Assembly (NCBI GenBank): GCA_025357945.1
Contig: JANYLJ010000056.1
Coordinates: 124,646 to 188,645, forward strand
Reading direction: 5' to 3'
DNA from: Gemmatimonadota bacterium
GTDB taxonomy: Bacteria; Gemmatimonadota; Gemmatimonadetes; Gemmatimonadales; GWC2-71-9
DNA: 64,000 nucleotides
Numbering within the stretch: position 1 is the stretch's first letter; the number at the start of each line of letters is the position of its first letter. Below the pieces are notes generated by a model. It was not told the origin of the DNA. It did not search any database and worked only from the letters and a program-made list of their open reading frames with translations. The position numbers and the translations under genes are program-made. This document shows, piece after piece, positions 4,210 to 12,808 of this stretch.

Positions 4210-5936
4210 TGCGCATGTCCTGGTCGGTGGCGCCGATCGCGGTGCTGCTCGTGACGATGACCCCGGTGTTGCGGAACACCACCGCCGCGGCCCAGGCGGG
4301 ACGGACGCTCGACATCGGCGGGCCGCCCGGCGATTCGACGGCACGAGCGTGTCTGCCGGACTCGATCGTCACCGCGGCCCTCGCTGCCTTCAACAGCCCG
4401 ACCGCGGTACGCGTCTTCGGGGGCGGCCAGATTCCGGCGGGCGCCACGATCAGCGGCAGCTACAGCGTGTTCCAGGGCCAGCTGAAACTGGACGGCACCG
4501 TACAAGGCAACGTCGTTGTGCTCAATGGCGACGCCCGGGTGACCCACACCGGTGTGGTAACCGGCACGATCACTGTGCTTGGCGGACGGCTGGTGCTCGA
4601 TCCCGGTGCCACGGTCGCGGGCCGCTACGAGTGCGAAGCGCAGCCGGCACTCACCAAGCTGCCGAACGGAACCGTCGCACGCCGGCCGCCAAGCCGATCC
4701 ATCGGCAATATTGCTTCCGGCGTGGCCTGGACCGTCGGCGACTACCGGATCACGCCGCACGTCGGGATTGGCCAGTACAACCGCGTCGAAGCGCTGCCGA
4801 TCCAGGGCGGTGCCAACGTCAGCCGGCGCCTGAGCGGGTCCGACAATGTCCGGGCCGAGGTCTTCGCCATCGCGCGCACGGGGCGCGACCCGAGCGGGAG
4901 CCGTTCAGCGCTCGGCTGGCATGTCTCCGGCCTGTATGCTCACCAGGGATCGCTCCCGTTCACGCTGTCCGTTGAGGGTGGCTCGACGATCGACGCCACG
5001 AGCGACCGCCCGTTCTCCGCCATCGAATCCGGCGTCAGTGCCGTGCTGCTGCGGCGTGACTACAACGACTGGTACCTTCGCCACGGCGCCAGCGTGATGG
5101 CCAGCGTGCGAGCAATGCGCGAGGTGACGCTTATTGGCGCGTTCGACATCAGCCATCAGACGACAGTGCTGGCGATCGACGCGTTATCGCTGTTCCGCAA
5201 CACCGAGGCGTGGCGCCCAAATCCGCTGATCGATGATGGCACCTACCAGACGGTCACCGGGCGGGTGGTATGGGATGCCCGCGACCCGCTGGCGCACCCG
5301 GTGCTCAGTTGGTTTGTTCGGGCCGAAATCAGCCGGGTATCAAGCAACGACCTCACGCCGGTATCAGTGCCGGCAACGATCCGTGACGCGCTGCCTGCGA
5401 GTGGATACCGCGAGACGGACGGGGAGCTCGACGTTCGGGCGTCGCTGAGGATTGACCCGGAACAGCGGCTCAACTTCCGGGTCGTTGGCGGCGGGTATCT
5501 CGCTGGCGATCCGCTGACGATCCAGCGCCGGCGTGCGGTCGGCGGTGCCGACCCGCTACTCGGTTATCCCTTCCGCGGCATCAACTGCGATCGCCAGCGC
5601 AAGCCGTACCCGTCCACGCCGGCGCTTTGTGACCGCAGTGCCGCGATCCAGGCGGAGTATCGCCGAACGCTACCGATTGACCTCAGCACCCGGATCAACG
5701 GCTACACGATCGGCATCCGCAAACCCGACCTGGTCCTGTTCGCCGACGCCGGGAGTGCCTGGCTCGCAGGCGACAGCGCGGGCCGGGTCCCGGCCAACCG
5801 GATCCAGTCGCTGCGGGAGTGGCGGTCCGACGTGGGTGTCGGTGTCACCAGCGGGCCATTCGGCCTGTTCCTGGCGAAGTCGCTCGCCGACGCGATCCCG
5901 GTTCGACTGACCCTGCTCCTGACCCAGCGCTTCTAG
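4206..5936 (+). CDS. Secreted polymer-forming domain fused to BamA-like beta-barrel
   Basis: Probable outer-membrane protein of 576 residues. An N-terminal signal peptide (about 1-30, MSWSVAPIAVLLVTMTPVLR then TTAAAQA) is followed at about 70-140 by a bactofilin-like right-handed beta-helix (GGGQIPAGATISGSYSVFQG, then TVQGNVVVLNGDARVTHTG). The rest resembles a 12-16-strand barrel. It includes a surface-antigen-like LLGYPFRG segment and a VLFADAGSAW strand, and ends in a terminal Phe (LLLTQRF), typical of barrels handled by BamA. It overlaps the regulator stop by 4 bases. Polymer-forming domains are usually cytoplasmic, so export of one joined to a barrel is unusual. The function is unknown. 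Barrel assignment is moderately sure. Confidence 0.7.
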   Translation: MMRMSWSVAPIAVLLVTMTPVLRNTTAAAQAGRTLDIGGPPGDSTARACLPDSIVTAALAAFNSPTAVRVFGGGQIPAGATISGSYSVFQGQLKLDGTVQGNVVVLNGDARVTHTGVVTGTITVLGGRLVLDPGATVAGRYECEAQPALTKLPNGTVARRPPSRSIGNIASGVAWTVGDYRITPHVGIGQYNRVEALPIQGGANVSRRLSGSDNVRAEVFAIARTGRDPSGSRSALGWHVSGLYAHQGSLPFTLSVEGGSTIDATSDRPFSAIESGVSAVLLRRDYNDWYLRHGASVMASVRAMREVTLIGAFDISHQTTVLAIDALSLFRNTEAWRPNPLIDDGTYQTVTGRVVWDARDPLAHPVLSWFVRAEISRVSSNDLTPVSVPATIRDALPASGYRETDGELDVRASLRIDPEQRLNFRVVGGGYLAGDPLTIQRRRAVGGADPLLGYPFRGINCDRQRKPYPSTPALCDRSAAIQAEYRRTLPIDLSTRINGYTIGIRKPDLVLFADAGSAWLAGDSAGRVPANRIQSLREWRSDVGVGVTSGPFGLFLAKSLADAIPVRLTLLLTQRF

Positions 5937-5942
5937 TCGGAC

Positions 5943-6536
5943 ATGCGTCGCGCGCGCTACCTCCTCGCCGTCGTGGTAGTCGGCGCCGCATCCGCGGCGT
6001 CGGCGCAGGGACGCGCGATTGCGTTGGCCCGACTGGTGCCACAAGGGAGCGGCCCGCCGTGGGTTGCCGTCCACGTCAGCAACCTGCTCGACGATTCGCA
6101 ATGGCTGGAGCCGTGGCGCAATGCGTATGTCGTGCAAGTGCACTGGAAGGTCCAGCTCTGGCAGAAGAACTTCCTGATCAACACGTCGCAGCCAGCGGTG
6201 GAGTGGGATGTGTACGTGCAACAGGTACCCACGATCGACCTGTTCAATTACACCGAACGCACCACCGGCAGAACAATGCGGAAGTCCTTCGGTACCGTCG
6301 ACTCGCTCAAGGCCTACCTGACCGAAGACGTCAGCATCCCGGGGCCGCGACAGCTGGCGCCCGGCCGGTGGTACTACCGGATTGATGTGCGGGTGGCCAC
6401 GTCGGCGGAAGATCCCCTCGATCCGCGCACCGCAGCGAATGCAGGCGGCGTCGCTCAGGCGATCGTCGGCTGGATCGTCGGCGGTGGCCCGACGCGTGAC
6501 TTGCCGACGGTCACGGTGCCCTTCACGGTCCCGTGA
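5943..6536 (+). CDS. Exported DUF4390-like protein
   Basis: Protein of 197 residues with a clear signal peptide (MRRARYLLAVVVVGAASAAS, then AQG). The mature part is about 175 residues of beta-rich sequence with Trp/Tyr clusters (VHWKVQLWQKNFLI, APGRWYYRIDVRV). It begins 6 bases after the upstream stop, so it closes the kinase operon. In proteobacteria a DUF4390 protein is encoded next to an NtrY/NtrX-like pair, and the length, signal peptide and the W-Y-Y-R-I-D-V segment fit. I could not verify the family, and the molecular role of DUF4390 is not established. Confidence 0.6.
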   Translation: MRRARYLLAVVVVGAASAASAQGRAIALARLVPQGSGPPWVAVHVSNLLDDSQWLEPWRNAYVVQVHWKVQLWQKNFLINTSQPAVEWDVYVQQVPTIDLFNYTERTTGRTMRKSFGTVDSLKAYLTEDVSIPGPRQLAPGRWYYRIDVRVATSAEDPLDPRTAANAGGVAQAIVGWIVGGGPTRDLPTVTVPFTVP

Positions 6537-6549
6537 AGCGTGGCGAGCG

Positions 6550-7101
6550 TCAGCGCGGTCGGATCGCCGCCAGGGCGCCTTCGCCGTAAAAGATGCGGAT
6601 GTACTTCAGCTGCGCTTGCGACAGGCGGCGAATCGCCCACGACAGGTGGACGAAGTGCGGTTCCATTGGCGAGCGCAGCGGGTGCATGCCGATTTCGTCG
6701 GGGAGGCGACTTCCCTTCCGCGTGTTACACGAGGAGCACGCCGTCACCACGTTGGTCCACTCATTGCTGCCGCCGCGGGACTGCGGCACCACGTGGTCGC
6801 GCGTCAGGCACTCGCGCGGCTTGAGTTGCGCCTGCACCCGGGTGCAATACTGACAGGTGTACGAGTCGCGGGCGAAGAGGAAGGTGTTGGTGACTTGGCG
6901 GCGGAAGCGACGGGGGACGTGCACGAAGCGGACGAGGCGGATGATGGCAGGTCGGGGCATTTGCATTCGGACACTGCGCACCAATTCGTCGCCGTCGGCT
7001 TCGACAATTTCCGCCTTACCCTCGATAACGAGCCGCAAGGCGCGTCGCGTGGGGACCATGGTAAGTGGTTCGAAAGAGGCGTTCAGGGCCAGACAGCGCA
7101 C
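6550..7101 (-). CDS. HNH endonuclease family protein
   Basis: Zinc-binding HNH nuclease of 183 residues. The core has CQYC as first zinc pair, the catalytic segment LTRDHVVPQSRGGSNEW, then the second pair CSSCNTRKG; His in DHVVP is the likely general base. The N-terminal 70 residues (NASFEPLTMVPTRRALRLV) are the typical lead of the widely distributed housekeeping HNH proteins, not a phage or restriction type. The start is GTG at 7101 with GGAG about 8 bases upstream. The IS1-family transposon ends 73 bases upstream. Without the transposon, this gene would follow rfbA in the same direction. The biological role is not known. Confidence 0.88.
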   Translation of the reverse strand: MRCLALNASFEPLTMVPTRRALRLVIEGKAEIVEADGDELVRSVRMQMPRPAIIRLVRFVHVPRRFRRQVTNTFLFARDSYTCQYCTRVQAQLKPRECLTRDHVVPQSRGGSNEWTNVVTACSSCNTRKGSRLPDEIGMHPLRSPMEPHFVHLSWAIRRLSQAQLKYIRIFYGEGALAAIRPR

Positions 7102-7166
7102 CCATTGAGCTCCGTTCGGGGACCCCTATGGATAACCCCGATCGGTGCGTTGTTTCAAGGGTGGCG

Positions 7167-7174
7167 GGGCACGG
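7167..7174. repeat. Target site duplication, left copy
   Basis: GGGCACGG directly abuts the left terminal repeat and is repeated directly abutting the right one. An 8-bp duplication fits IS1-family insertion. Confidence 0.85.
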
Positions 7175-7207
7175 GGTAGTGTCCTAGTTCGGAAAGTGAC
7201 AATCCGG
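7175..7207. repeat. Left terminal inverted repeat
   Basis: Thirty-three bases that match the reverse complement of the right end at 26 positions. The outer 15 are identical and an inner ACAATC block is also conserved. It is the likely transposase binding and cleavage site. Confidence 0.88.
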
Positions 7208-7215
7208 CCCGGCAG

Positions 7216-7230
7216 CTAGCAGGTTGCTAG
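7216..7230 (+). terminator. Short hairpin followed by T-run inside left end
   Basis: CTAGCA-GGT-TGCTAG is followed by TTTT, just inside the left terminal repeat and 10 bases before the first passenger gene. The stem is only 6 bp. It may stop transcripts entering from outside, as many insertion sequences do, or act as an operator for the 7240 gene. Evidence is weak. Confidence 0.3.
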
Positions 7231-7239
7231 TTTTCTGCT

Positions 7240-7485
7240 ATGACCGAATCCGCGCGTCGTCGTTGGGGAATCGTAGGCCGCGCCGCGCCGGAGCCTTTTA
7301 CCTACCCTGACGGCAGGCCCGGTCTCTCCGTGCGGTTGGACATCCAATGTCCGGATTGCGGAGTCACCGGGGTTCAGATCATCCGTGGAACGCCCGAAAA
7401 CGAGTCCGACAGCGAAGTCCCCTGCGGCTTCTGCGGTGGAGTCTTTGGGCGTCCGCTCAACCCATTCTTGCCGTTGGACCTCTGA
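7240..7485 (+). CDS. Small zinc-ribbon-like protein, transposon passenger
   Basis: Protein of 81 residues with two CxxC pairs (IQCPDCGVTG and VPCGFCGGVF) 24 residues apart, the arrangement of a small zinc ribbon. The N-terminus is basic and proline-rich. No family is recognised. The ATG at 7240 lies 32 bases inside the left terminal repeat, so the gene belongs to the mobile element. Its stop overlaps the next gene's ATG (TGATG), so both are probably co-translated. It could be a nucleic-acid-binding accessory protein, but nothing beyond the zinc motif supports this. Confidence 0.65.
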   Translation: MTESARRRWGIVGRAAPEPFTYPDGRPGLSVRLDIQCPDCGVTGVQIIRGTPENESDSEVPCGFCGGVFGRPLNPFLPLDL

Positions 7486-7733
7486 TGCCCAAGAAACCCG
7501 CCCCCAAGATGCGCCCCGACGTGAACGAGACGGCCTACCGGGTCATGCTGGAGGCCACTGGGCAAATTCCCAAGACCGACCCGGCCAAGAAAGCCAAGAA
7601 CCCCGACGCGGTGGCGCGGGGTTCGAAGGGTGGAAAGAAGGGCGGTAAGTCGCGGGCGCAGACTCTTAGCCCTCAGAGTCGGTCAGAGATTGCGTCGAAG
7701 GCCGCTTTGATTCGGTGGAAGAAGGCACCGTAG
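7485..7733 (+). CDS. Small basic conserved protein, transposon passenger
   Basis: Protein of 82 residues, very Lys/Arg-rich. It has a glycine-lysine tract (GSKGGKKGGKSRAQ) followed by LSPQSRSEIASKAALIRWKK. This C-terminal pattern (GGKKGG..RA..LSP..R.EIA.KAA..RW) recurs in small basic proteins of many bacteria and in insertion-element neighbourhoods; its role is not established, with nucleic-acid binding a reasonable guess. ATG at 7485 overlaps the preceding stop. Its last 68 bases overlap the 3' end of the opposite-strand fic gene, which is unusual and suggests that one of the two tails was extended secondarily. Confidence 0.65.
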   Translation: MPKKPAPKMRPDVNETAYRVMLEATGQIPKTDPAKKAKNPDAVARGSKGGKKGGKSRAQTLSPQSRSEIASKAALIRWKKAP

Positions 7734-8916
7734 TAGCAAGCGTCAATGAAATCTGCGGCGATCCACTAGTAGTCGTGCTCGGCGTCGGCGCATTTGGCAT
7801 GTCCGGATATGGATTAGGGATCACGCCGTCCTCCTCTACATTCTTCCGAGCGTTCGCGACTAGGTCTGCCGCACGATAGCTCCGAGCGCGTTTCTCTCCT
7901 TCCGCGAGCAACAACCCGCCCTCCGCTAGCGCCGTTAGATCGCGACTCGCAACCTGTTGGGAAATGTCAGCCGCCGAACGATAGGTAGCGTTTACGACCT
8001 TGAAACCCTGCGCCGCGTCCCAGAGGGCGAGGGCCGTGCGCTCTGGAAGTCCGCGCGATGCCGCCAGTTCTGCGAGCGCATCATAAAGTCGCTCGCCTTC
8101 CCGGACACGGCGAAGCATTGTATTGGCTTGGTAAAAATGCGCCCGGAGACAAAAGCGCACGAATGGCCGCGCATTGTTGCCAGGATGCCAAGACCCCCGC
8201 CCCACTTCGGTCAGTACGTCGTAGTAGGGGCCTTGATGATATCCGAGATATTCCTCGATGCTAGAAAAGGTCGGCTCAAGAATCCCGCCCAAGCCGAGAA
8301 CCAATGTCTGTAGGCAGCGAGCCATCCGTCCGTTGCCGTCACGGAATGGATGAATCATTGTCAGGTTGAGGTGCGACAACGCCGCGCCCACCATATTCGG
8401 CACAGTTGGTTCCGGGTTTCTCATCGACTCAACTAAGTCGCGCATTAAGTCGGCTACTTGGCCGAAATCTGGACCCTCGTATACCTGCTGGCGCTTGTCT
8501 TCGTCGTAGACATAGGTCGCGTTCTCTCGCCACATGCCTGGCGTCTTGTCTAGATCGTGCTCAAGCATCATGAAGTGAAGGCTCTTGACGACCTGTTCCG
8601 ACCAGACAAAATGCGGATCGCGTGCCAGCTGAAGCACGTGGGTCATTGCCCGGCGGTACCCCTCGATTGCCCGAACAGTTTCCTCGTTTGCCTCGACGGA
8701 TTCGCCCTGAGCCGCAGCGACTACATCCTGTCGGGCGATCCGGTACCCCTCGATGCTATTCGATCCCCTGATCGCCCGGCCCATCGTGCTACGGCGCAGC
8801 AGCCCGTTCCACCGGCGCGGGACGGCAAGCGTGTGCTGGAGGCCCTGCTTGGTCTCCAGAATTCGTCCTATCACATCTCGGTCTATCGGCTCAAGCCGCG
8901 GGACTGCGAAGATCAT
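7666..8916 (-). CDS. Fic-domain AMP transferase, class II, with winged helix (transposon passenger)
   Basis: Fic enzyme of 416 residues predicted to transfer AMP from ATP to a protein hydroxyl. The active motif HPFRDGNGR (189-197) is complete, with catalytic His189. An N-terminal inhibitory motif SNSIEG (52-57) matches [ST]xxxE[GN], which places it in class II, self-inhibited in cis, so no separate antitoxin is required. Residues about 305-350 (AADISQQVASRDLTALAEGG) resemble a winged helix, so DNA binding and autoregulation are possible. The last 60 residues are Ser/Thr/Pro-rich and antisense to the neighbouring small gene. ATG at 8916 has GAAAGGG 7 bases upstream. The target protein is unknown. 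Confidence 0.92.
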   Translation of the reverse strand: MIFAVPRLEPIDRDVIGRILETKQGLQHTLAVPRRWNGLLRRSTMGRAIRGSNSIEGYRIARQDVVAAAQGESVEANEETVRAIEGYRRAMTHVLQLARDPHFVWSEQVVKSLHFMMLEHDLDKTPGMWRENATYVYDEDKRQQVYEGPDFGQVADLMRDLVESMRNPEPTVPNMVGAALSHLNLTMIHPFRDGNGRMARCLQTLVLGLGGILEPTFSSIEEYLGYHQGPYYDVLTEVGRGSWHPGNNARPFVRFCLRAHFYQANTMLRRVREGERLYDALAELAASRGLPERTALALWDAAQGFKVVNATYRSAADISQQVASRDLTALAEGGLLLAEGEKRARSYRAADLVANARKNVEEDGVIPNPYPDMPNAPTPSTTTSGSPQISLTLATTVPSSTESKRPSTQSLTDSEG

Positions 8917-8934
8917 GGATATACCCTTTCATTG

Positions 8935-8958
8935 TGTCCGACGGACATATATTATATG
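8935..8958. promoter_or_regulatory. Paired palindromes between fic and transposase (candidate operator/promoter)
   Basis: The 125-base divergent gap between fic and the transposase contains two adjacent perfect palindromes: TGTCCG-A-CGGACA (8935-8947) and CATATA-T-TATATG (8946-8958). Their centres are 11 bases apart, one helical turn, and the second is AT-rich enough to serve as a -10 region in either direction. The site lies 19 bases upstream of the fic ATG. Arrangement and position suggest an operator controlling fic and possibly the transposase. The Fic winged helix is one candidate binder. Confidence 0.45.
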
Positions 8959-9041
8959 TATATGGATCGTACCGCAAGGGAACGTTGGTGCCCATCATGC
9001 GGAGACTTGACAATGCTTGAGCAATTGGCTAGATTCATTCA

Positions 9042-9899
9042 ATGAACAAGCTGACGACGGAAAAGTGCGCTGCCATCGTCCGGGCCTTAGTCGAGGGAAC
9101 CTCGGTCCGGGGGACCGCCCGCATGGTAGGAGTCTCCAAAGACACCGTTTTGAAGCTGCTGGTGGAGCTTGGCGACTTCTGCTCGATCTACCAGGACTAC
9201 CGGCTCCGTGACCTGAATACGACTCGGGTAGAGGCGGACGAGATTTGGGCGTTCGTGGGCGCAAAGCAGCGGAACGCGACTCGTCAGGGCGATGGCGACG
9301 TGTGGACCTTCACGGCGATTGATGCCGATTCCAAGCTGATGATTTCGTGGCTGGTCGGCCCACGCGACAGCAGCAGCGCCAACCCCTTCATGGCCGACGT
9401 GGCAAGCCGGATGCGGAACCGGATTCAGTTGACGACGGACGGCCACAACATGTACATCGAAGCCGTGCGGAAGGCGTTCGAGTTCGCCCGCGTGGACTTC
9501 GCCATGCTCGCCAAGAGCTATGCCAGCCCGCAAGACGCAAGCGGTCCGCGCCGGTATTCGCCGCCGGTGTGCGTCGGGGCGGTCAAGGAACGGCGCGTCG
9601 GTCGCCCGAAGATGGAACTTGTGTCCACGTCGTTCGTGGAGCGGGCGAACCTGACCATGCGGATGCAGATGCGCCGGTTTACCCGGCTGACCAACGGCTT
9701 CTCCAGGAAGGCCGAGAACCACGCACACGCCGTCAGTCTCGCGTTCATGCACTACAACTTCTGCCGTAGCCATACGACGCTGACGAAGGCCGCGAAAGGC
9801 ATCCACACGACCCCGGCGATGGCAAGCGGCTTGACGAACCACGTGTGGACGGTGGAAGAGATTCTGGCGATGATGGATGAGACCGCGCAGATCGGATAA
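9042..9899 (+). CDS. IS1-family transposase
   Basis: DDE transposase of 285 residues. A helix-turn-helix occupies about 10-45 (SVRGTARMVGVSKDTVLKLL). The catalytic core starts with EADEIWAFVGAK and has likely catalytic residues D66, D133 (LTTDGHN) and E200 (STSFVERANLTMRMQ). The DEIWAFVG lead and the E-x-x-N-x-x-x-R signature are characteristic of IS1-type transposases. The protein is one continuous frame, so no frameshift is needed as in classical IS1. It matches the GG-initiated ends and 8-bp duplication. ATG at 9042 lacks a clear ribosome site, consistent with low expression. It ends 2 bases from the convergent protease gene. Confidence 0.9.
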   Translation: MNKLTTEKCAAIVRALVEGTSVRGTARMVGVSKDTVLKLLVELGDFCSIYQDYRLRDLNTTRVEADEIWAFVGAKQRNATRQGDGDVWTFTAIDADSKLMISWLVGPRDSSSANPFMADVASRMRNRIQLTTDGHNMYIEAVRKAFEFARVDFAMLAKSYASPQDASGPRRYSPPVCVGAVKERRVGRPKMELVSTSFVERANLTMRMQMRRFTRLTNGFSRKAENHAHAVSLAFMHYNFCRSHTTLTKAAKGIHTTPAMASGLTNHVWTVEEILAMMDETAQIG

Positions 9900-9901
9900 G
9901 G

Positions 9902-10435
9902 CTAGCGGCGTTTCTTCTTGGCTCTGTTGCGCGTAAAATTGAACGGCTGATACGCGGGGCCTTGTGCTGCTTTCGCGTCCTCCACAAAATCGCGCGATTC
10001 GATGGAGGGAACCCGAAAGGTGAACAACGTCTTGCCGCCGACGTTGGTGATTACGAAATCGCCCTTCGTGATGATGTCCATGCCGATAAGCGCCAAGCCG
10101 CCGTTTACCTCGCCTTCGGTGACCTGGACATTGGCTATCGCAACGTTGTTGGGTAGCGCAACATTAACCATGAACGCATCACGCCACCCCGCGCTATTGA
10201 CGCCTGTACCCCAGACCTTGGTGAACGGACTCAGGCCGCACTTGGTAACGATGTCCTTTGAGATCATGGAGTTCGTGGCGCCCGTATCCCAGATTGCCTC
10301 GAACTCCTGATACGCCGGATGGGATGCTACGGGGACCGAGGCTGGATCGAACGCGGCACAGACCCCAATTCTTGTTCGGAGGTCACGCGCAAGCCCAGTG
10401 TAGTGATTGGTAAACGCATGAAACGTCTTCGTCAC
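9902..10435 (-). CDS. Retropepsin-like aspartic protease (transposon passenger)
   Basis: Protein of 177 residues with one aspartic-protease half: catalytic DTGATNS near residues 50-56 (EAIWDTGATNSMISKDIV), a second psi-loop-like segment LALIGMDIITKGDFVI (ALIGMD), and beta strands between. Retropepsin-type enzymes act as homodimers with one DTG per chain. The C-terminus is strongly basic (NRAKKKRR). The start ATG overlaps the stop of the DUF5678-like gene by 4 bases, so the two are translationally coupled. Substrate unknown. It could process a product of the element or of the host. The fold is fairly sure and activity is inferred. Confidence 0.8.
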   Translation of the reverse strand: MTKTFHAFTNHYTGLARDLRTRIGVCAAFDPASVPVASHPAYQEFEAIWDTGATNSMISKDIVTKCGLSPFTKVWGTGVNSAGWRDAFMVNVALPNNVAIANVQVTEGEVNGGLALIGMDIITKGDFVITNVGGKTLFTFRVPSIESRDFVEDAKAAQGPAYQPFNFTRNRAKKKRR

Positions 10436-10698
10436 CGCGCAAGAACTACTCTGCTGTGGTATACCTGGGTGACGCTTTCCTTCCCCGGCTCCGCCTTCTG
10501 CACGAGGAACGTCCCAACCGGATAAAGCTTCGAGCTTTTTTGAAAAGCGGTTGTGGCGTCGTTGTAATCCCCGACCACACTCTGGCCGTGAATGACCACG
10601 AAGCGCCCCCGATACTTCTCGGCAAGCTCAGCTTGGTGCGACAGGTAGTAGTCGAACTCCTGCTTCAACGCATTCTCATTGGAAGTCACTTGCCTCAC
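10432..10698 (-). CDS. DUF5678-like small protein, partner of retropepsin (transposon passenger)
   Basis: Protein of 88 residues with the pattern of DUF5678-type proteins: an N-terminal helix ending in LAEKYRGRFVVIHGQSVVGD, then NDATTAFQKSSKLYPVGTFLVQKAEP. These read as one alpha/beta unit in which YRGRFVVIHGQ is the hallmark. Such proteins are often encoded beside retropepsin-like proteases, as here (4-base overlap). The start is GTG at 10698, with AAGGGGG just upstream; a second in-frame GTG 9 bases downstream is also possible. The function is unknown. Coupling suggests it is a substrate, regulator or partner of the protease. Confidence 0.7.
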   Translation of the reverse strand: MRQVTSNENALKQEFDYYLSHQAELAEKYRGRFVVIHGQSVVGDYNDATTAFQKSSKLYPVGTFLVQKAEPGKESVTQVYHSRVVLAR

Positions 10699-10707
10699 CC
10701 CCCTTCG

Positions 10708-10731
10708 TGCTTGTGAAACCCTTCACAAGCA
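10708..10731. promoter_or_regulatory. Perfect 10-bp inverted repeat upstream of passenger operon
   Basis: TGCTTGTGAA-ACCC-TTCACAAGCA lies 9 bases upstream of the DUF5678-like start. Transcribed on the minus strand it forms a perfect 10-bp hairpin next to the ribosome site. It could be a transcription-factor operator or a translational control hairpin. Confidence 0.45.
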
Positions 10732-10818
10732 AGGCAGAACCTACTCTATCGGCGCTTTAGCGCCATCCCTGAACCTACGCGTAATAGGGACGTTCGGTGG
10801 CAAGGCCGGTGCCACATT

Positions 10819-10851
10819 CCCGATTGTAACGGCTCAAACTAGGACACTACC
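10819..10851. repeat. Right terminal inverted repeat
   Basis: The reverse complement begins GGTAGTGTCCTAGTT and matches the left end at 26 of 33 positions. Confidence 0.88.
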
Positions 10852-10859
10852 GGGCACGG
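10852..10859. repeat. Target site duplication, right copy
   Basis: GGGCACGG, identical to 7167-7174. Only 12 bases separate it from the stop codon of rfbA, so insertion was just past the gene. Confidence 0.85.
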
Positions 10860-10871
10860 GGCGCGGGACGA

Positions 10872-11750
10872 TCACGGCAGTATCTTGTCCGCCGCGAGGC
10901 GGGTGAGGTAGGCCCCGTACGGCGTATTCCGCATTTCGTGGGCGGCGCGGAGCAGCGCGTCGCGATCGATCCAACCCAGGCGGAAGGCGATTTCTTCGGG
11001 ACAGGCGACCTGCAGTCCCTGCCGCCTCTCCAGCGTGGCGACGAAACTCGCCGCTTCCTGGAGCGAGTCGTAGGTGCCGGTGTCGAGCCAGGCGAAGCCG
11101 CGACCGAGCACCTCCATGCGAAGCCGCCCACGACGGAGATACTCGCGATTCACGTCGGTGATTTCGTACTCGCCCCGGGCCGACGGACGCACGTCGGCGG
11201 CAATCGCAGTCACCTCGGCGTCGTAGAAGTAGAGCCCGGTAATGGCGAGGTTGGAGGTGGGCGCGAGCGGCTTCTCCTCCAGGCTCACGACCCGGTACTG
11301 ATCATCGACGTGGGCGATGCCGTAGCGCTCCGGATCAGCCACGTAGTATCCAAAGATGGTCGCGCCGGAGCGCTGAGCCGCCGCCCGCTGTAACCGGTGG
11401 ACCAGGCCGTGGCCGTAGAAGATGTTGTCGCCGAGCACGAGGGCGCAGTTGTCGCCAGCGATAAAATCGCGGCCGATGACAAAGGCCTGCGCCAGCCCGT
11501 TGGGAACCGGCTGCTCCGCGTATGACAACGACAGCCCCCATTGTGAACCGTCGCCGAGCAGGGCGCGGAACTGCGGCTGCTCGTGGGGCGTGGTGATCAC
11601 GAGGATGTCGCGAATGCGGGCCAGCATGAGGGTGGTGAGCGAGTAGTAGATCATCGGCTTGTCGTACACCGGCAGCAGCTGCTTGCTCACACCGCGGGTG
11701 ATGGGCCAGAGCCGGCTGCCGGTGCCACCCGCGAGGACGATACCCTTCAT
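10872..11750 (-). CDS. rfbA: Glucose-1-phosphate thymidylyltransferase
   Basis: Cytoplasmic enzyme making dTDP-glucose from dTTP and glucose-1-phosphate, the entry to dTDP-6-deoxysugars. The 292-residue protein has the nucleotidyltransferase signature [15 protein letters not shown], the [14 protein letters not shown] segment and the metal site [10 protein letters not shown], plus [15 protein letters not shown] near the C-terminus. ATG at 11750 overlaps the stop of rfbB by 4 bases (ATGA), which fixes the start. It is the last sugar gene before the transposon. The feedback-inhibited RmlA fold is expected. Full-length and intact. Confidence 0.97.
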
Positions 11751-12808
11751 GACGGCACGCCGAGTCCGAGGCGCTCGCCGCGGTAGGCGCCGGTGGCGAT
11801 CCGGCTGACCCATTCCTGGTGCGCGAGATACCAGTCGACCGTGCGGCGGAGGCCCGCGTCGAAGTCTTCGCGCGGCTGCCAACCGAGTTCGCTGCGCACG
11901 CGTGTCGCGTCGATGGCGTAGCGCAAGTCGTGCCCGGGGCGATCAGCCACGAACGTGATCAAGCGCTCGTGAGGGCCGGCTGGATCGGGGTGCCGCTCGT
12001 CGAGCAGGGCGCAGATGCGCCGGACCACGTCGATGTTCCGGCGCTCGTTGCCGCCGCCGATGTTGTAGGTGCGCCCCGGCACACCGCGTGCCAGCACCAG
12101 CCGGAGGGCGCGGGCGTGATCGTCGACATGAAGCCAGTCGCGGATGTTCTCGCCACGGCCGTAGACCGGCAGTGGCTCGCCGACGAGTGCCTTCTGGATC
12201 GTGAGCGGAATCAGTTTTTCGGGGAAGTGATACGGCCCGTAGTTGTTGGAGCAGTTGGTGACCAGCAGTGGCAACCCGTAGGTACGCTGCCACGCGCGCG
12301 CGAGATGATCGGCGCCGGCCTTGCTCGCCGAATAGGGCGAGCTCGGGTCGTACGGCGTGCTCTCGGTAAAATGTCCGTCGGCGGCCAGGGAACCGAACAC
12401 CTCGTCGGTCGAGACATGGACGAAGCGGAAGGCCGCCGCGGCCGCGGGCGCCAGCGTACGCCAGTACCGCAAGGACTCCTGCAGCAGCGTGTAGGTGCCC
12501 ACCAGGTTGGTGCGGATGAAGTCGCCAGGACCATCGATCGAGCGGTCGACGTGTGATTCGGCGGCGAGGTGAAACACGCCGTCAGGCCGGGATTCGGTGA
12601 ACACATCGCGGAGGGTGGCCGCGTCGCAAATGTCGGCCCGGACAAAGTGGTGCCGCGGATGATGGAGCGCCTCGGCCAGCGACTCGAGGTTGCCGGCGTA
12701 GGTGAGCTTGTCGAGCGTGACGACGTGATCCTCGCCCTCGGCGATGAGCTGGCGTACCAGCGCCGATCCGATGAAGCCGGCGCCGCCGGTTACGAGATAG
12801 GTCGGCAT
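11747..12808 (-). CDS. rfbB: dTDP-glucose 4,6-dehydratase
   Basis: Extended short-chain dehydrogenase that converts dTDP-glucose to dTDP-4-keto-6-deoxyglucose. The 353-residue protein has the Rossmann motif [12 protein letters not shown], the STDEVFG segment (Thr and Asp/Glu of the dehydratase active site), [10 protein letters not shown] (Tyr-x3-Lys) and [14 protein letters not shown], all diagnostic of RmlB. ATG at 12808 lies 10 bases after the epimerase stop. It is coupled to rfbA. No rfbC or rfbD homologue follows, so the keto-sugar may be reduced by the neighbouring epimerase-family protein or completed elsewhere. Confidence 0.97.

What the first reader, a model, noticed from the sequence alone, without database searches (positions are those of the whole stretch)
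9902..10698. Retropepsin-like protease coupled to a DUF5678-like protein as mobile cargo
Seen: 4-base overlap of the two genes and an intact DTGATNS motif. Known: retropepsin-like bacterial proteins exist, yet substrates are mostly unknown. Inference: a small two-gene module that recurs as transferable cargo, with the DUF5678-like protein as partner or substrate.
Basis: partly seen in the sequence, partly recalled or inferred. Interest (0 to 1): 0.55.

Follow-up and report, generated by a model that had tools for sequence, protein, structure and literature searches.

The report
Retropepsin and DUF5678 mobile gene pair
A small gene of unknown function and a gene for an HIV-protease-like enzyme sit together here, and nearly always elsewhere in bacteria and their phages, which suggests that the small protein is the enzyme's dedicated partner and can be tested as such.

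Summary
In detail: a 177-aa retropepsin-like protease (P, 9902-10435 -) overlaps by 4 nt a DUF5678-like gene (D, 10432-10698 -). The pairing is near-obligate. Among 167 P loci fetched by P alone, 161 have a D-like ORF directly upstream on the same strand; one of the six exceptions is cut by a contig end. Hosts span 24 named phyla plus temperate-phage contigs and Leptospira phage LE1. Asked the other way, Pfam's own DUF5678 model in 50 genomes gives 46 places: 31 precede this P family, 10 precede intact retropepsins of other subfamilies, 1 precedes a remnant, 4 precede none. No third gene is conserved. A congeneric genome lacks the 4.6-kb segment that holds the pair, and carries its own pair elsewhere. 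P has the whole retropepsin fold (model of a relative). D is a small alpha/beta domain with a conserved but unstructured C-terminal tail (T-Q-T-F-H-S-R-V in most) whose motif differs with the protease clade. P ends in a SecA-like SEC-C motif or a basic tail. Best reading: D binds and controls P, the tail engaging the protease (antitoxin-like inhibitor favoured, substrate the main rival). Nothing biochemical is shown. I found no paper on it; PADLOC lists a similar untested candidate, PDC-M08.

The parts
9902..10435 (-). P: retropepsin-like aspartic protease, 177 aa, GTG start overlapping the stop of D
   Evidence: fold by model of relative L011
10432..10698 (-). D: DUF5678-like protein, 88 aa (85 aa if it starts at the GTG at 10689)
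   Evidence: model; start discussed from sequence
10268..10288 (-). Catalytic motif D-T-G-A-T-N-S, P residues 50-56
   Evidence: D50 and G52 in 100% of the 139 rows of A6
10070..10090 (-). Second loop L-I-G-M-D-I-I, P residues 116-122 (equivalent to I-I-G-R-N of HIV-1 protease, an equivalence recalled from memory)
   Evidence: G118 and M119 invariant in 139 rows
9905..9934 (-). Basic C-terminal tail of P (R-N-R-A-K-K-K-R-R), replaced by a SEC-C motif in about half of the relatives
10441..10473 (-). Conserved C-terminal tail of D (V-T-Q-V-Y-H-S-R-V-V-L), low confidence in the model of D alone
10708..10731 (.). Perfect 10-nt inverted repeat with 4-nt loop just upstream of D; not a family-wide feature
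   Evidence: 0 of 500 shuffles reach it; family not clearly above control genes
9042..9899 (+). IS1-like transposase gene converging on P, 2 nt from its stop codon
   Evidence: ends not defined
7666..8916 (-). Fic-family protein (SoFic-like) in the same variable segment
7166..11758 (.). Segment absent from congeneric genome G012, where the flanking HNH and rmlB-like genes abut

Best explanation
D and P form a mobile two-gene module, translated D first, in which D is the dedicated protein partner and regulator of P. P is a one-domain retropepsin, presumably cytoplasmic, that should work as a homodimer. D consists of a small alpha/beta domain plus a flexible, protease-clade-specific C-terminal tail. 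The tail resembles an extended retropepsin ligand (T-Q-T-F-H-S-R-V, aromatic or Ile in the middle) and most likely lies in or beside the protease cleft, holding P in check, much as a type II antitoxin tail does with its toxin. The C-terminus of P (SEC-C zinc-type motif or basic tail) probably places it on a cellular structure such as the ribosome, nascent chains or SecB-like chaperones. The module would be kept by temperate phages and chromosomal islands because release of P gives them an advantage (superinfection exclusion, defence or maintenance). Shown: gene pairing, conservation, fold of P, class-specific tail, mobility. Inferred: complex, inhibition, localisation, benefit.
For: D directly upstream of P on the same strand in 161 of 167 loci found through P alone, and nowhere else among 26,438 ORFs scanned. 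Reverse tests: 41 of 46 DUF5678 places in 50 genomes, and 10 of 14 places in 249 genomes of the window's phylum, directly precede an intact retropepsin. D-P distances correlate (r 0.46; 999 permutations reach at most 0.17). No conserved third gene. D tail conserved but pLDDT under 50 in D alone; position 80 is F, Y or I in 137 of 139. Tail motif differs with the protease clade. Model of a D-P read-through chain has pTM 0.79, more than I expect if D were unplaced against P (my estimate, no PAE). Catalytic D50 and G52 in all 139 rows. SEC-C or basic C-terminus in 111 of 146 by my rules. D without intact P is commoner (9 of 60 D-first places) than P without D (5 of 167 besides one contig edge), as expected if P is harmful alone.
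Against: No assay; no coordinates or PAE, so the interface was not seen. The linked chain forces D and P together. The coupling analysis between D and P columns did not point to the active site (inconclusive). D has no recognised DNA-binding domain, and the palindrome upstream of D is not a family feature, so TA-like autoregulation is not supported. P also occurs without D in one phage group. One D (L228) has an in-frame stop beside an intact P, which an obligatory inhibitor would not allow unless it is a sequencing error or P is weak. The conserved tail fits a substrate equally well.
Confidence: 0.45

Rival explanations
1. D is the dedicated substrate of P. P cuts within the conserved C-terminal tail, and the cut switches on or off an activity of D or frees the tail as a signal.
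For: The tail is conserved, flexible when D is alone and of retropepsin-site character, with a hydrophobic residue in the middle in 137 of 139. It resembles the HIV-1 matrix/capsid cleavage site in pattern (recalled, no call). The tail motif follows the protease clade.
Against: D has no recognisable effector domain: among 146 D proteins Pfam gives DUF5678 in 92 and otherwise only three single weak hits. Substrates of housekeeping proteases are rarely encoded beside them in nearly every genome. D occurs without intact P in 9 of 60 D-first places.
Confidence: 0.25
2. D is an adaptor that brings other substrates to P, or an activator or chaperone that P needs to fold or dimerise.
For: D lies upstream and is translated first or together with P. 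The DUF5678 core is shared across several protease subfamilies while tails differ. RimB and other A2 peptidases are described as working with partner proteins (PMC11957791 opening text and Discussion).
Against: No direct evidence. P is found without D beside truncated phage J-like genes with an intact active site.
Confidence: 0.2
3. The module is an anti-phage or superinfection-exclusion system: phage infection frees P from D and P then cuts a host or phage protein. (This can hold together with the best explanation; it is about the benefit.)
For: Present on many temperate-phage contigs, some copies next to CI-like repressors or integrases. P weakly matches PADLOC PDC-M08B in 77 of 139, and PADLOC pairs it with an 86-position PDC-M08A. 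SoFic-like neighbour in the window.
Against: PDC-M08 is only a candidate in that database. The window's D has no PADLOC match, and 1 of 146 D proteins matches PDC-M08A, at E 0.0037. Chromosomal neighbours are not enriched for any family.
Confidence: 0.2
4. The adjacency is an accident of this genome and the overlap carries no meaning.
For: None beyond the small size of both genes.
Against:: adjacency in 161 of 167 P-first loci and in 51 of 60 D-first places, over 24 named phyla.
Confidence: 0.01

Closest known systems
APRc, retropepsin-like protease of Rickettsia conorii (PDB 5c9f, 5c9b, 5c9d)
   Same: Best structural match of the P domain of relative L011: Z 12.6 over 121 residues, rmsd 3.3; Foldseek E 1.6e-7. 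One-domain bacterial retropepsin.
   Different: 19% identity. I recall no DUF5678 partner for APRc (not tested).
RimB, retropepsin-like protease acting on ribosomal protein RpsF (PMC11957791: opening text and Discussion seen)
   Same: Bacterial retropepsin-like protease with a cis-encoded partner (RimK) and a link to the ribosome.
   Different: RimB removes poly-glutamate and is encoded with RimK. The Pfam hits of window P do not include the RimB/DUF785 family, and no RimK-like gene adjoins the pair in the window (by reading the neighbouring ORFs).
RloA secreted retropepsin-like proteases of Pseudomonas aeruginosa (PMC12239564: abstract and section list seen)
   Same: Bacterial retropepsin-like fold; operon with regulators.
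   Different: They have signal peptides, glutamate-rich targets and other operon partners.
PDC-M08 (PADLOC-DB candidate, two components A and B)
   Same: B models match P weakly (77 of 139 members, best 8.6e-8); A is an 86-position model, the size of D. Probably the nearest listed two-gene arrangement.
   Different: D of the window does not match PDC-M08A; 1 of 146 D proteins does, at E 0.0037. No paper in the library names PDC-M08.
Type II toxin-antitoxin modules
   Same: Small mobile bicistron, first gene overlapping the second, flexible C-terminal tail on the first product.
   Different: Protease of retropepsin type as second product; no DNA-binding domain recognised in D; toxicity untested.

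Membership tests
Retropepsin-like aspartic protease (clan AA) | Catalytic hydrophobic-D-[TS]-G-A motif | tested here: met
   DTGATNS; WDTG in 144 of 146 relatives (a W precedes D)
Retropepsin-like aspartic protease (clan AA) | Second hydrophobic-hydrophobic-Gly loop and complete one-lobe fold | tested here: met
   LIGMDII in the window; relative L011 aligns to 102 of 104 residues of EIAV protease, Z 10.5, and to APRc, Z 12.6. Fold of the window protein itself not modelled
Retropepsin-like aspartic protease (clan AA) | Pfam gathering score of PF13975 or PF13650 | tested here: inconclusive
   Window P is just below both cut-offs; relatives L003, L004, L006, L007 are above, L005 is below
Retropepsin-like aspartic protease (clan AA) | Homodimer with proteolytic activity | not testable with these tools
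   No assay or multimer prediction
DUF5678 (PF18929) | Score above the Pfam gathering cut-off | tested here: met
   24.1 bits against 23.2; 92 of 146 D relatives match at E 0.01
PADLOC PDC-M08 | Match to component B | tested here: inconclusive
   PDLC04402, E 1.2e-4, 20.2 bits, no curated cut-off given
PADLOC PDC-M08 | Match to component A | tested here: not met
   Window D: no PADLOC family at E 1; 1 of 146 relatives at E 0.0037
Type II toxin-antitoxin | Two small overlapping genes, antitoxin usually first | tested here: met
   54 of 139 pairs overlap by my start choice; D first in 161 of 161
Type II toxin-antitoxin | Autoregulation by a DNA-binding antitoxin at an operator | tested here: inconclusive
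   Palindrome in the window, but family not clearly above control genes (arms of 8 or more: 12.4% of 145 against 8.7% of 679); no DNA-binding domain found
Type II toxin-antitoxin | Toxicity of the second gene neutralised by the first | not testable with these tools
   Needs expression in a laboratory strain
RimB-type protease | Membership in the RimB/DUF785 sequence family | tested here: not met
   Pfam hits of P at E up to 1 are PF13975, PF13650, PF09668, PF08284, PF00077 only

The most novel reading that the evidence does not exclude
DUF5678 is a general retropepsin-partner domain: across bacteria and phages each retropepsin subfamily has its own DUF5678 protein whose C-terminal tail is tuned to that protease. 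The pair is a new class of mobile protease-based module, a retropepsin 'toxin' or effector held by a tail-in-cleft inhibitor and tethered to the ribosome or Sec machinery by SEC-C or basic tails, used in conflicts between phages and bacteria.
Probability: 0.3. Interest if true: 0.82.

Novelty: new variant of a known kind. Interest (0 to 1): 0.62.

Why it matters
DUF5678 has no known role, and bacterial retropepsins have few known partners or substrates. A near-obligate pairing seen over 24 named phyla, in temperate phages and across several protease subfamilies gives the DUF a direct, cheap hypothesis (partner of the protease next door) and gives the protease a first candidate ligand with a named motif. 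If the tail is an inhibitor it would be a natural, protein-based retropepsin inhibitor; if it is a substrate it would be the first cognate site for a large family of orphan proteases.

Tried and rejected
Accidental adjacency: rejected by forward and reverse co-occurrence. Single-gene story with a conserved larger operon: rejected, since 130 chromosomal neighbours gave no recurring Pfam family (the 25 families shown were seen in 1 member each) and few neighbours are tightly linked (5 of 141 upstream, 8 of 134 downstream). Plasmid spread: no match to P or D in the plasmid collection; the L006 protein matched 568 plasmid records, and the 20 listed rows are annotated mostly as YchJ, UPF0149 or SEC-C proteins, i.e. 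its SEC-C tail. Head-maturation protease: the pair has no fixed place beside capsid genes; not supported. Co-variation of D tail with P active-site columns: tried with 139 pairs, top pairs scattered, inconclusive. Operator upstream of D as a family trait: not supported. IS ends around the IS1-like gene: not found. Promoter and terminator scan: nothing. A fold for D among solved structures: no match with E at or below 0.001, best VIA Z 3.7; only viral predicted structures matched, two of the four named DUF5678 of pandoraviruses. Literature: DUF5678 occurs in one unrelated paper (listing only); no paper for retropepsin with aspartic protease and toxin-antitoxin, for three of retropepsin, SEC-C, aspartyl protease, prophage, or for retropepsin-like with prokaryotic and gene neighborhood. 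Subscription papers and preprints are not in that library.

Limits: of 293 genome and 102 viral relatives only the best 80 of each were returned and studied; most are MAG or viral contigs, so host names are uncertain. The 50 genomes were those of loci L009-L060 (L020 and L046, near-duplicates, left out), chosen because they carry a P; so the 31 paired places are partly circular, while the 15 other DUF5678 places are not. In those 15, partners were recognised by reading ORFs for D-[TS]-G and, for the 10 intact ones, by Pfam (best E 2e-8 to 6e-3, several below cut-off). P starts were chosen by me as nearest the D stop, which favours tight spacing; the profile-based gap (median 15 nt, range -28 to 142) does not depend on that. 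The 139-row alignment A6 left out 7 of the 146 non-redundant P proteins, mostly those with uncertain starts. The neighbour sets given to searches were 130 of 131 and 104 of 106 selected (three very long proteins left out), and only u1/d1 genes of 90 aa or more on plus-oriented loci.

Full report
What is there. On the minus strand, a DUF5678-like gene (D, 10432-10698) is followed with a GTGA overlap by a retropepsin-like protease gene (P, 9902-10435). Pfam places D in DUF5678 over its cut-off and P near the aspartyl-protease models just below theirs. The pair is single-copy in its genome. An IS1-like transposase gene converges on P and ends 2 nt from its stop; a SoFic-like gene follows. G+C of the pair is 56%, against 65.6% for the window.

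Is it a unit elsewhere? A first scan of 298 genomes of the phylum with P found 3 other genomes with P, and all 3 have a DUF5678-like ORF directly upstream. A scan of viral contigs with P gave two phage contigs, both with D directly upstream. An alignment of these six P proteins then found 293 relatives in one-genome-per-species contigs and 102 in viral contigs; the best 80 of each were kept. Over all 167 loci then held (some are duplicates; 146 clusters of P at 90% among those with D), a profile made from six D proteins hits exactly one place in 161 loci, always directly upstream of P on the same strand, and nothing else among 26,438 ORFs. Six loci have no D: one starts at a contig end, and five are phage contigs in which P overlaps the stop of a truncated J-like tail gene (four of the five read in full). 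Among 146 non-redundant pairs, 139 have a usual start codon by my choice; 128 of these lie between -8 and +18 nt and 26 have the 4-nt overlap. No D-P fusion was seen among the 161 pairs.

Reverse tests. In 249 genomes of the window's phylum the D profile found 14 places in 12 genomes; 10 directly precede an intact retropepsin gene, 1 precedes a remnant in which the active-site half is deleted (L223), 3 have none. The Pfam model alone found only the window's own copy there, so it is insensitive for this phylum. In 50 genomes that carry a P, the Pfam model found 46 places: 31 precede a P of this family. The other 15, which are not circular, include 10 that directly precede an intact retropepsin of other kinds (D-S-G-A-D...L-G-Q/R, or D-T-G-A-S...L-L-G-R-D), one beside a remnant (L267), and four with none (L263, L274, L300, L302). 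All ten of these proteases have weak to clear Pfam aspartyl-protease matches. So DUF5678 proteins appear to be general cis-partners of bacterial retropepsins, not only of this family.

Anatomy of P. In 139 aligned proteins D50, G52, A53, G118, M119 and P143 are invariant, with W49, T51 and T136 nearly so. A model of relative L011 aligns to Rickettsia APRc (Z 12.6, 121 residues, rmsd 3.3) and to nearly the whole of EIAV protease (Z 10.5, 102 of 104 residues) (Foldseek). The C-terminus is modular: 67 of 146 end in a SecA-like SEC-C motif, 44 in a basic tail and 35 in neither by my rule, though several of the 35 carry cut or extended versions. On the P tree the SEC-C state changes 20 times. SecA-type metal-binding domains bind SecB (passages of PMC8076867); binding to ribosomes is my recollection. 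This suggests, but does not show, that P is placed at ribosomes or the Sec pathway.

Anatomy of D. The model of window D (146-sequence alignment, mean pLDDT 76, pTM 0.60) shows helix-helix-strand-strand-helix-strand, then a tail with pLDDT under 50 at residues 73-82. The tail is nevertheless conserved: consensus Y-T-Q-T-F-H-S-R-V-x-F, with F, Y or I at position 80 in 137 of 139. D proteins beside the L-I-G-R-D clade of proteases often end differently (for example S-N-P-A-L...G-V-P), and those beside the D-S-G-A-D clade differently again. A conserved, flexible, clade-specific tail on a protein encoded beside a protease is what a protease ligand should look like. A chain of L011 D and P read through the stop (37-row alignment) has mean pLDDT 86.8 and pTM 0.79. 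I estimate about 0.55 if D were not placed against P; no PAE or coordinates were available, and the short link forces closeness, so this is weak support.

Mobility. On the P tree of 139 rows the genome/viral state changes 28 times, and the phylum label changes 34 times over 60 labelled rows. D and P distances correlate (r 0.456; 999 permutations at most 0.171). The 72 rows from genome contigs include 59 with a named phylum, 24 phyla in all, besides the window's own. On viral contigs, neighbours of the pair include repressors (6 of 104 match a CI-like repressor family) and integrases (5 of 104). Leptospira phage LE1 carries D as a hypothetical gene and an open P frame that is not annotated as such. 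In genome G012 of the window's genus the flanking HNH gene lies directly beside the rmlB-like gene, so window 7166-11758 (Fic, transposase, P, D, rmlA) is absent; whether gained here or lost there is not known. G012's own pair lies on another contig.

How it most likely works. The simplest account is that D binds P and controls it, the tail engaging the protease. An inhibitor role is slightly favoured: D comes first and overlaps P, the catalytic residues are always kept, and D without an intact P (9 of 60 D-first places) is commoner than P without D (5 of 167 loci, one phage group). Against it stand an in-frame stop in one D beside an intact P (L228), no DNA-binding domain, and no family-wide operator. 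A substrate role for D is the main rival. All steps beyond pairing, conservation, fold and mobility are inference.

Known relatives. RimB and RloA are bacterial retropepsin-like proteases that act on glutamate-rich targets and have other partners (PMC11957791: opening text and Discussion; PMC12239564: abstract and section list). PADLOC's candidate PDC-M08 has a retropepsin-like component B that matches P weakly and an 86-position component A of the size of D, which one of 146 D proteins matches at E 0.0037. It may be a distant cousin of this module; it is untested as far as I could find.

Noticed in passing
L154, L157, L160, L162, L164 (around 5560-8470 in each): In one phage group P lacks D and instead starts over the stop codon of a J-like tail-tip gene (named by eye) that ends after about 360 aa at the same point. 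A truncated tail-tip gene coupled to a retropepsin is unexplained.
   Followed up: partly
L230 (Leptospira phage KF114879), about 5759-6490: The sequenced Leptospira LE1-type phages carry the pair; D is annotated hypothetical, while the protease frame is open but not annotated as a gene.
   Followed up: partly
D model m0db06570abb3 (window 10432-10698): Foldseek against viral predicted structures matches proteins of pandoraviruses, two of them named DUF5678 (E 2e-4 and 9e-4), so the domain also occurs in giant viruses of amoebae. Whether a retropepsin is adjacent there was not tested.
   Followed up: no
L261, L262, L264, L266, L268, L280, L299, L301, L303, L304: DUF5678 proteins also precede retropepsins of other subfamilies (D-S-G-A-D type, mostly in candidate-phyla genomes), with different D tails.
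   Followed up: yes
window 7166-11758: Variable segment between an HNH gene and the polysaccharide (rml) genes; congeners have other content or nothing at this place.
   Followed up: partly
window 9042-9899: IS1-like transposase whose stop lies 2 nt from that of P; a partial 76% copy lies elsewhere in the genome (G000:C70). Element ends were not found.
   Followed up: partly
window 10708-10731: Perfect 10-nt inverted repeat just upstream of D; operator-like here but not shared by the family.
   Followed up: yes
L223 and L267: Two DUF5678 genes are followed by retropepsin remnants that lost the active-site half while D stayed intact.
   Followed up: partly
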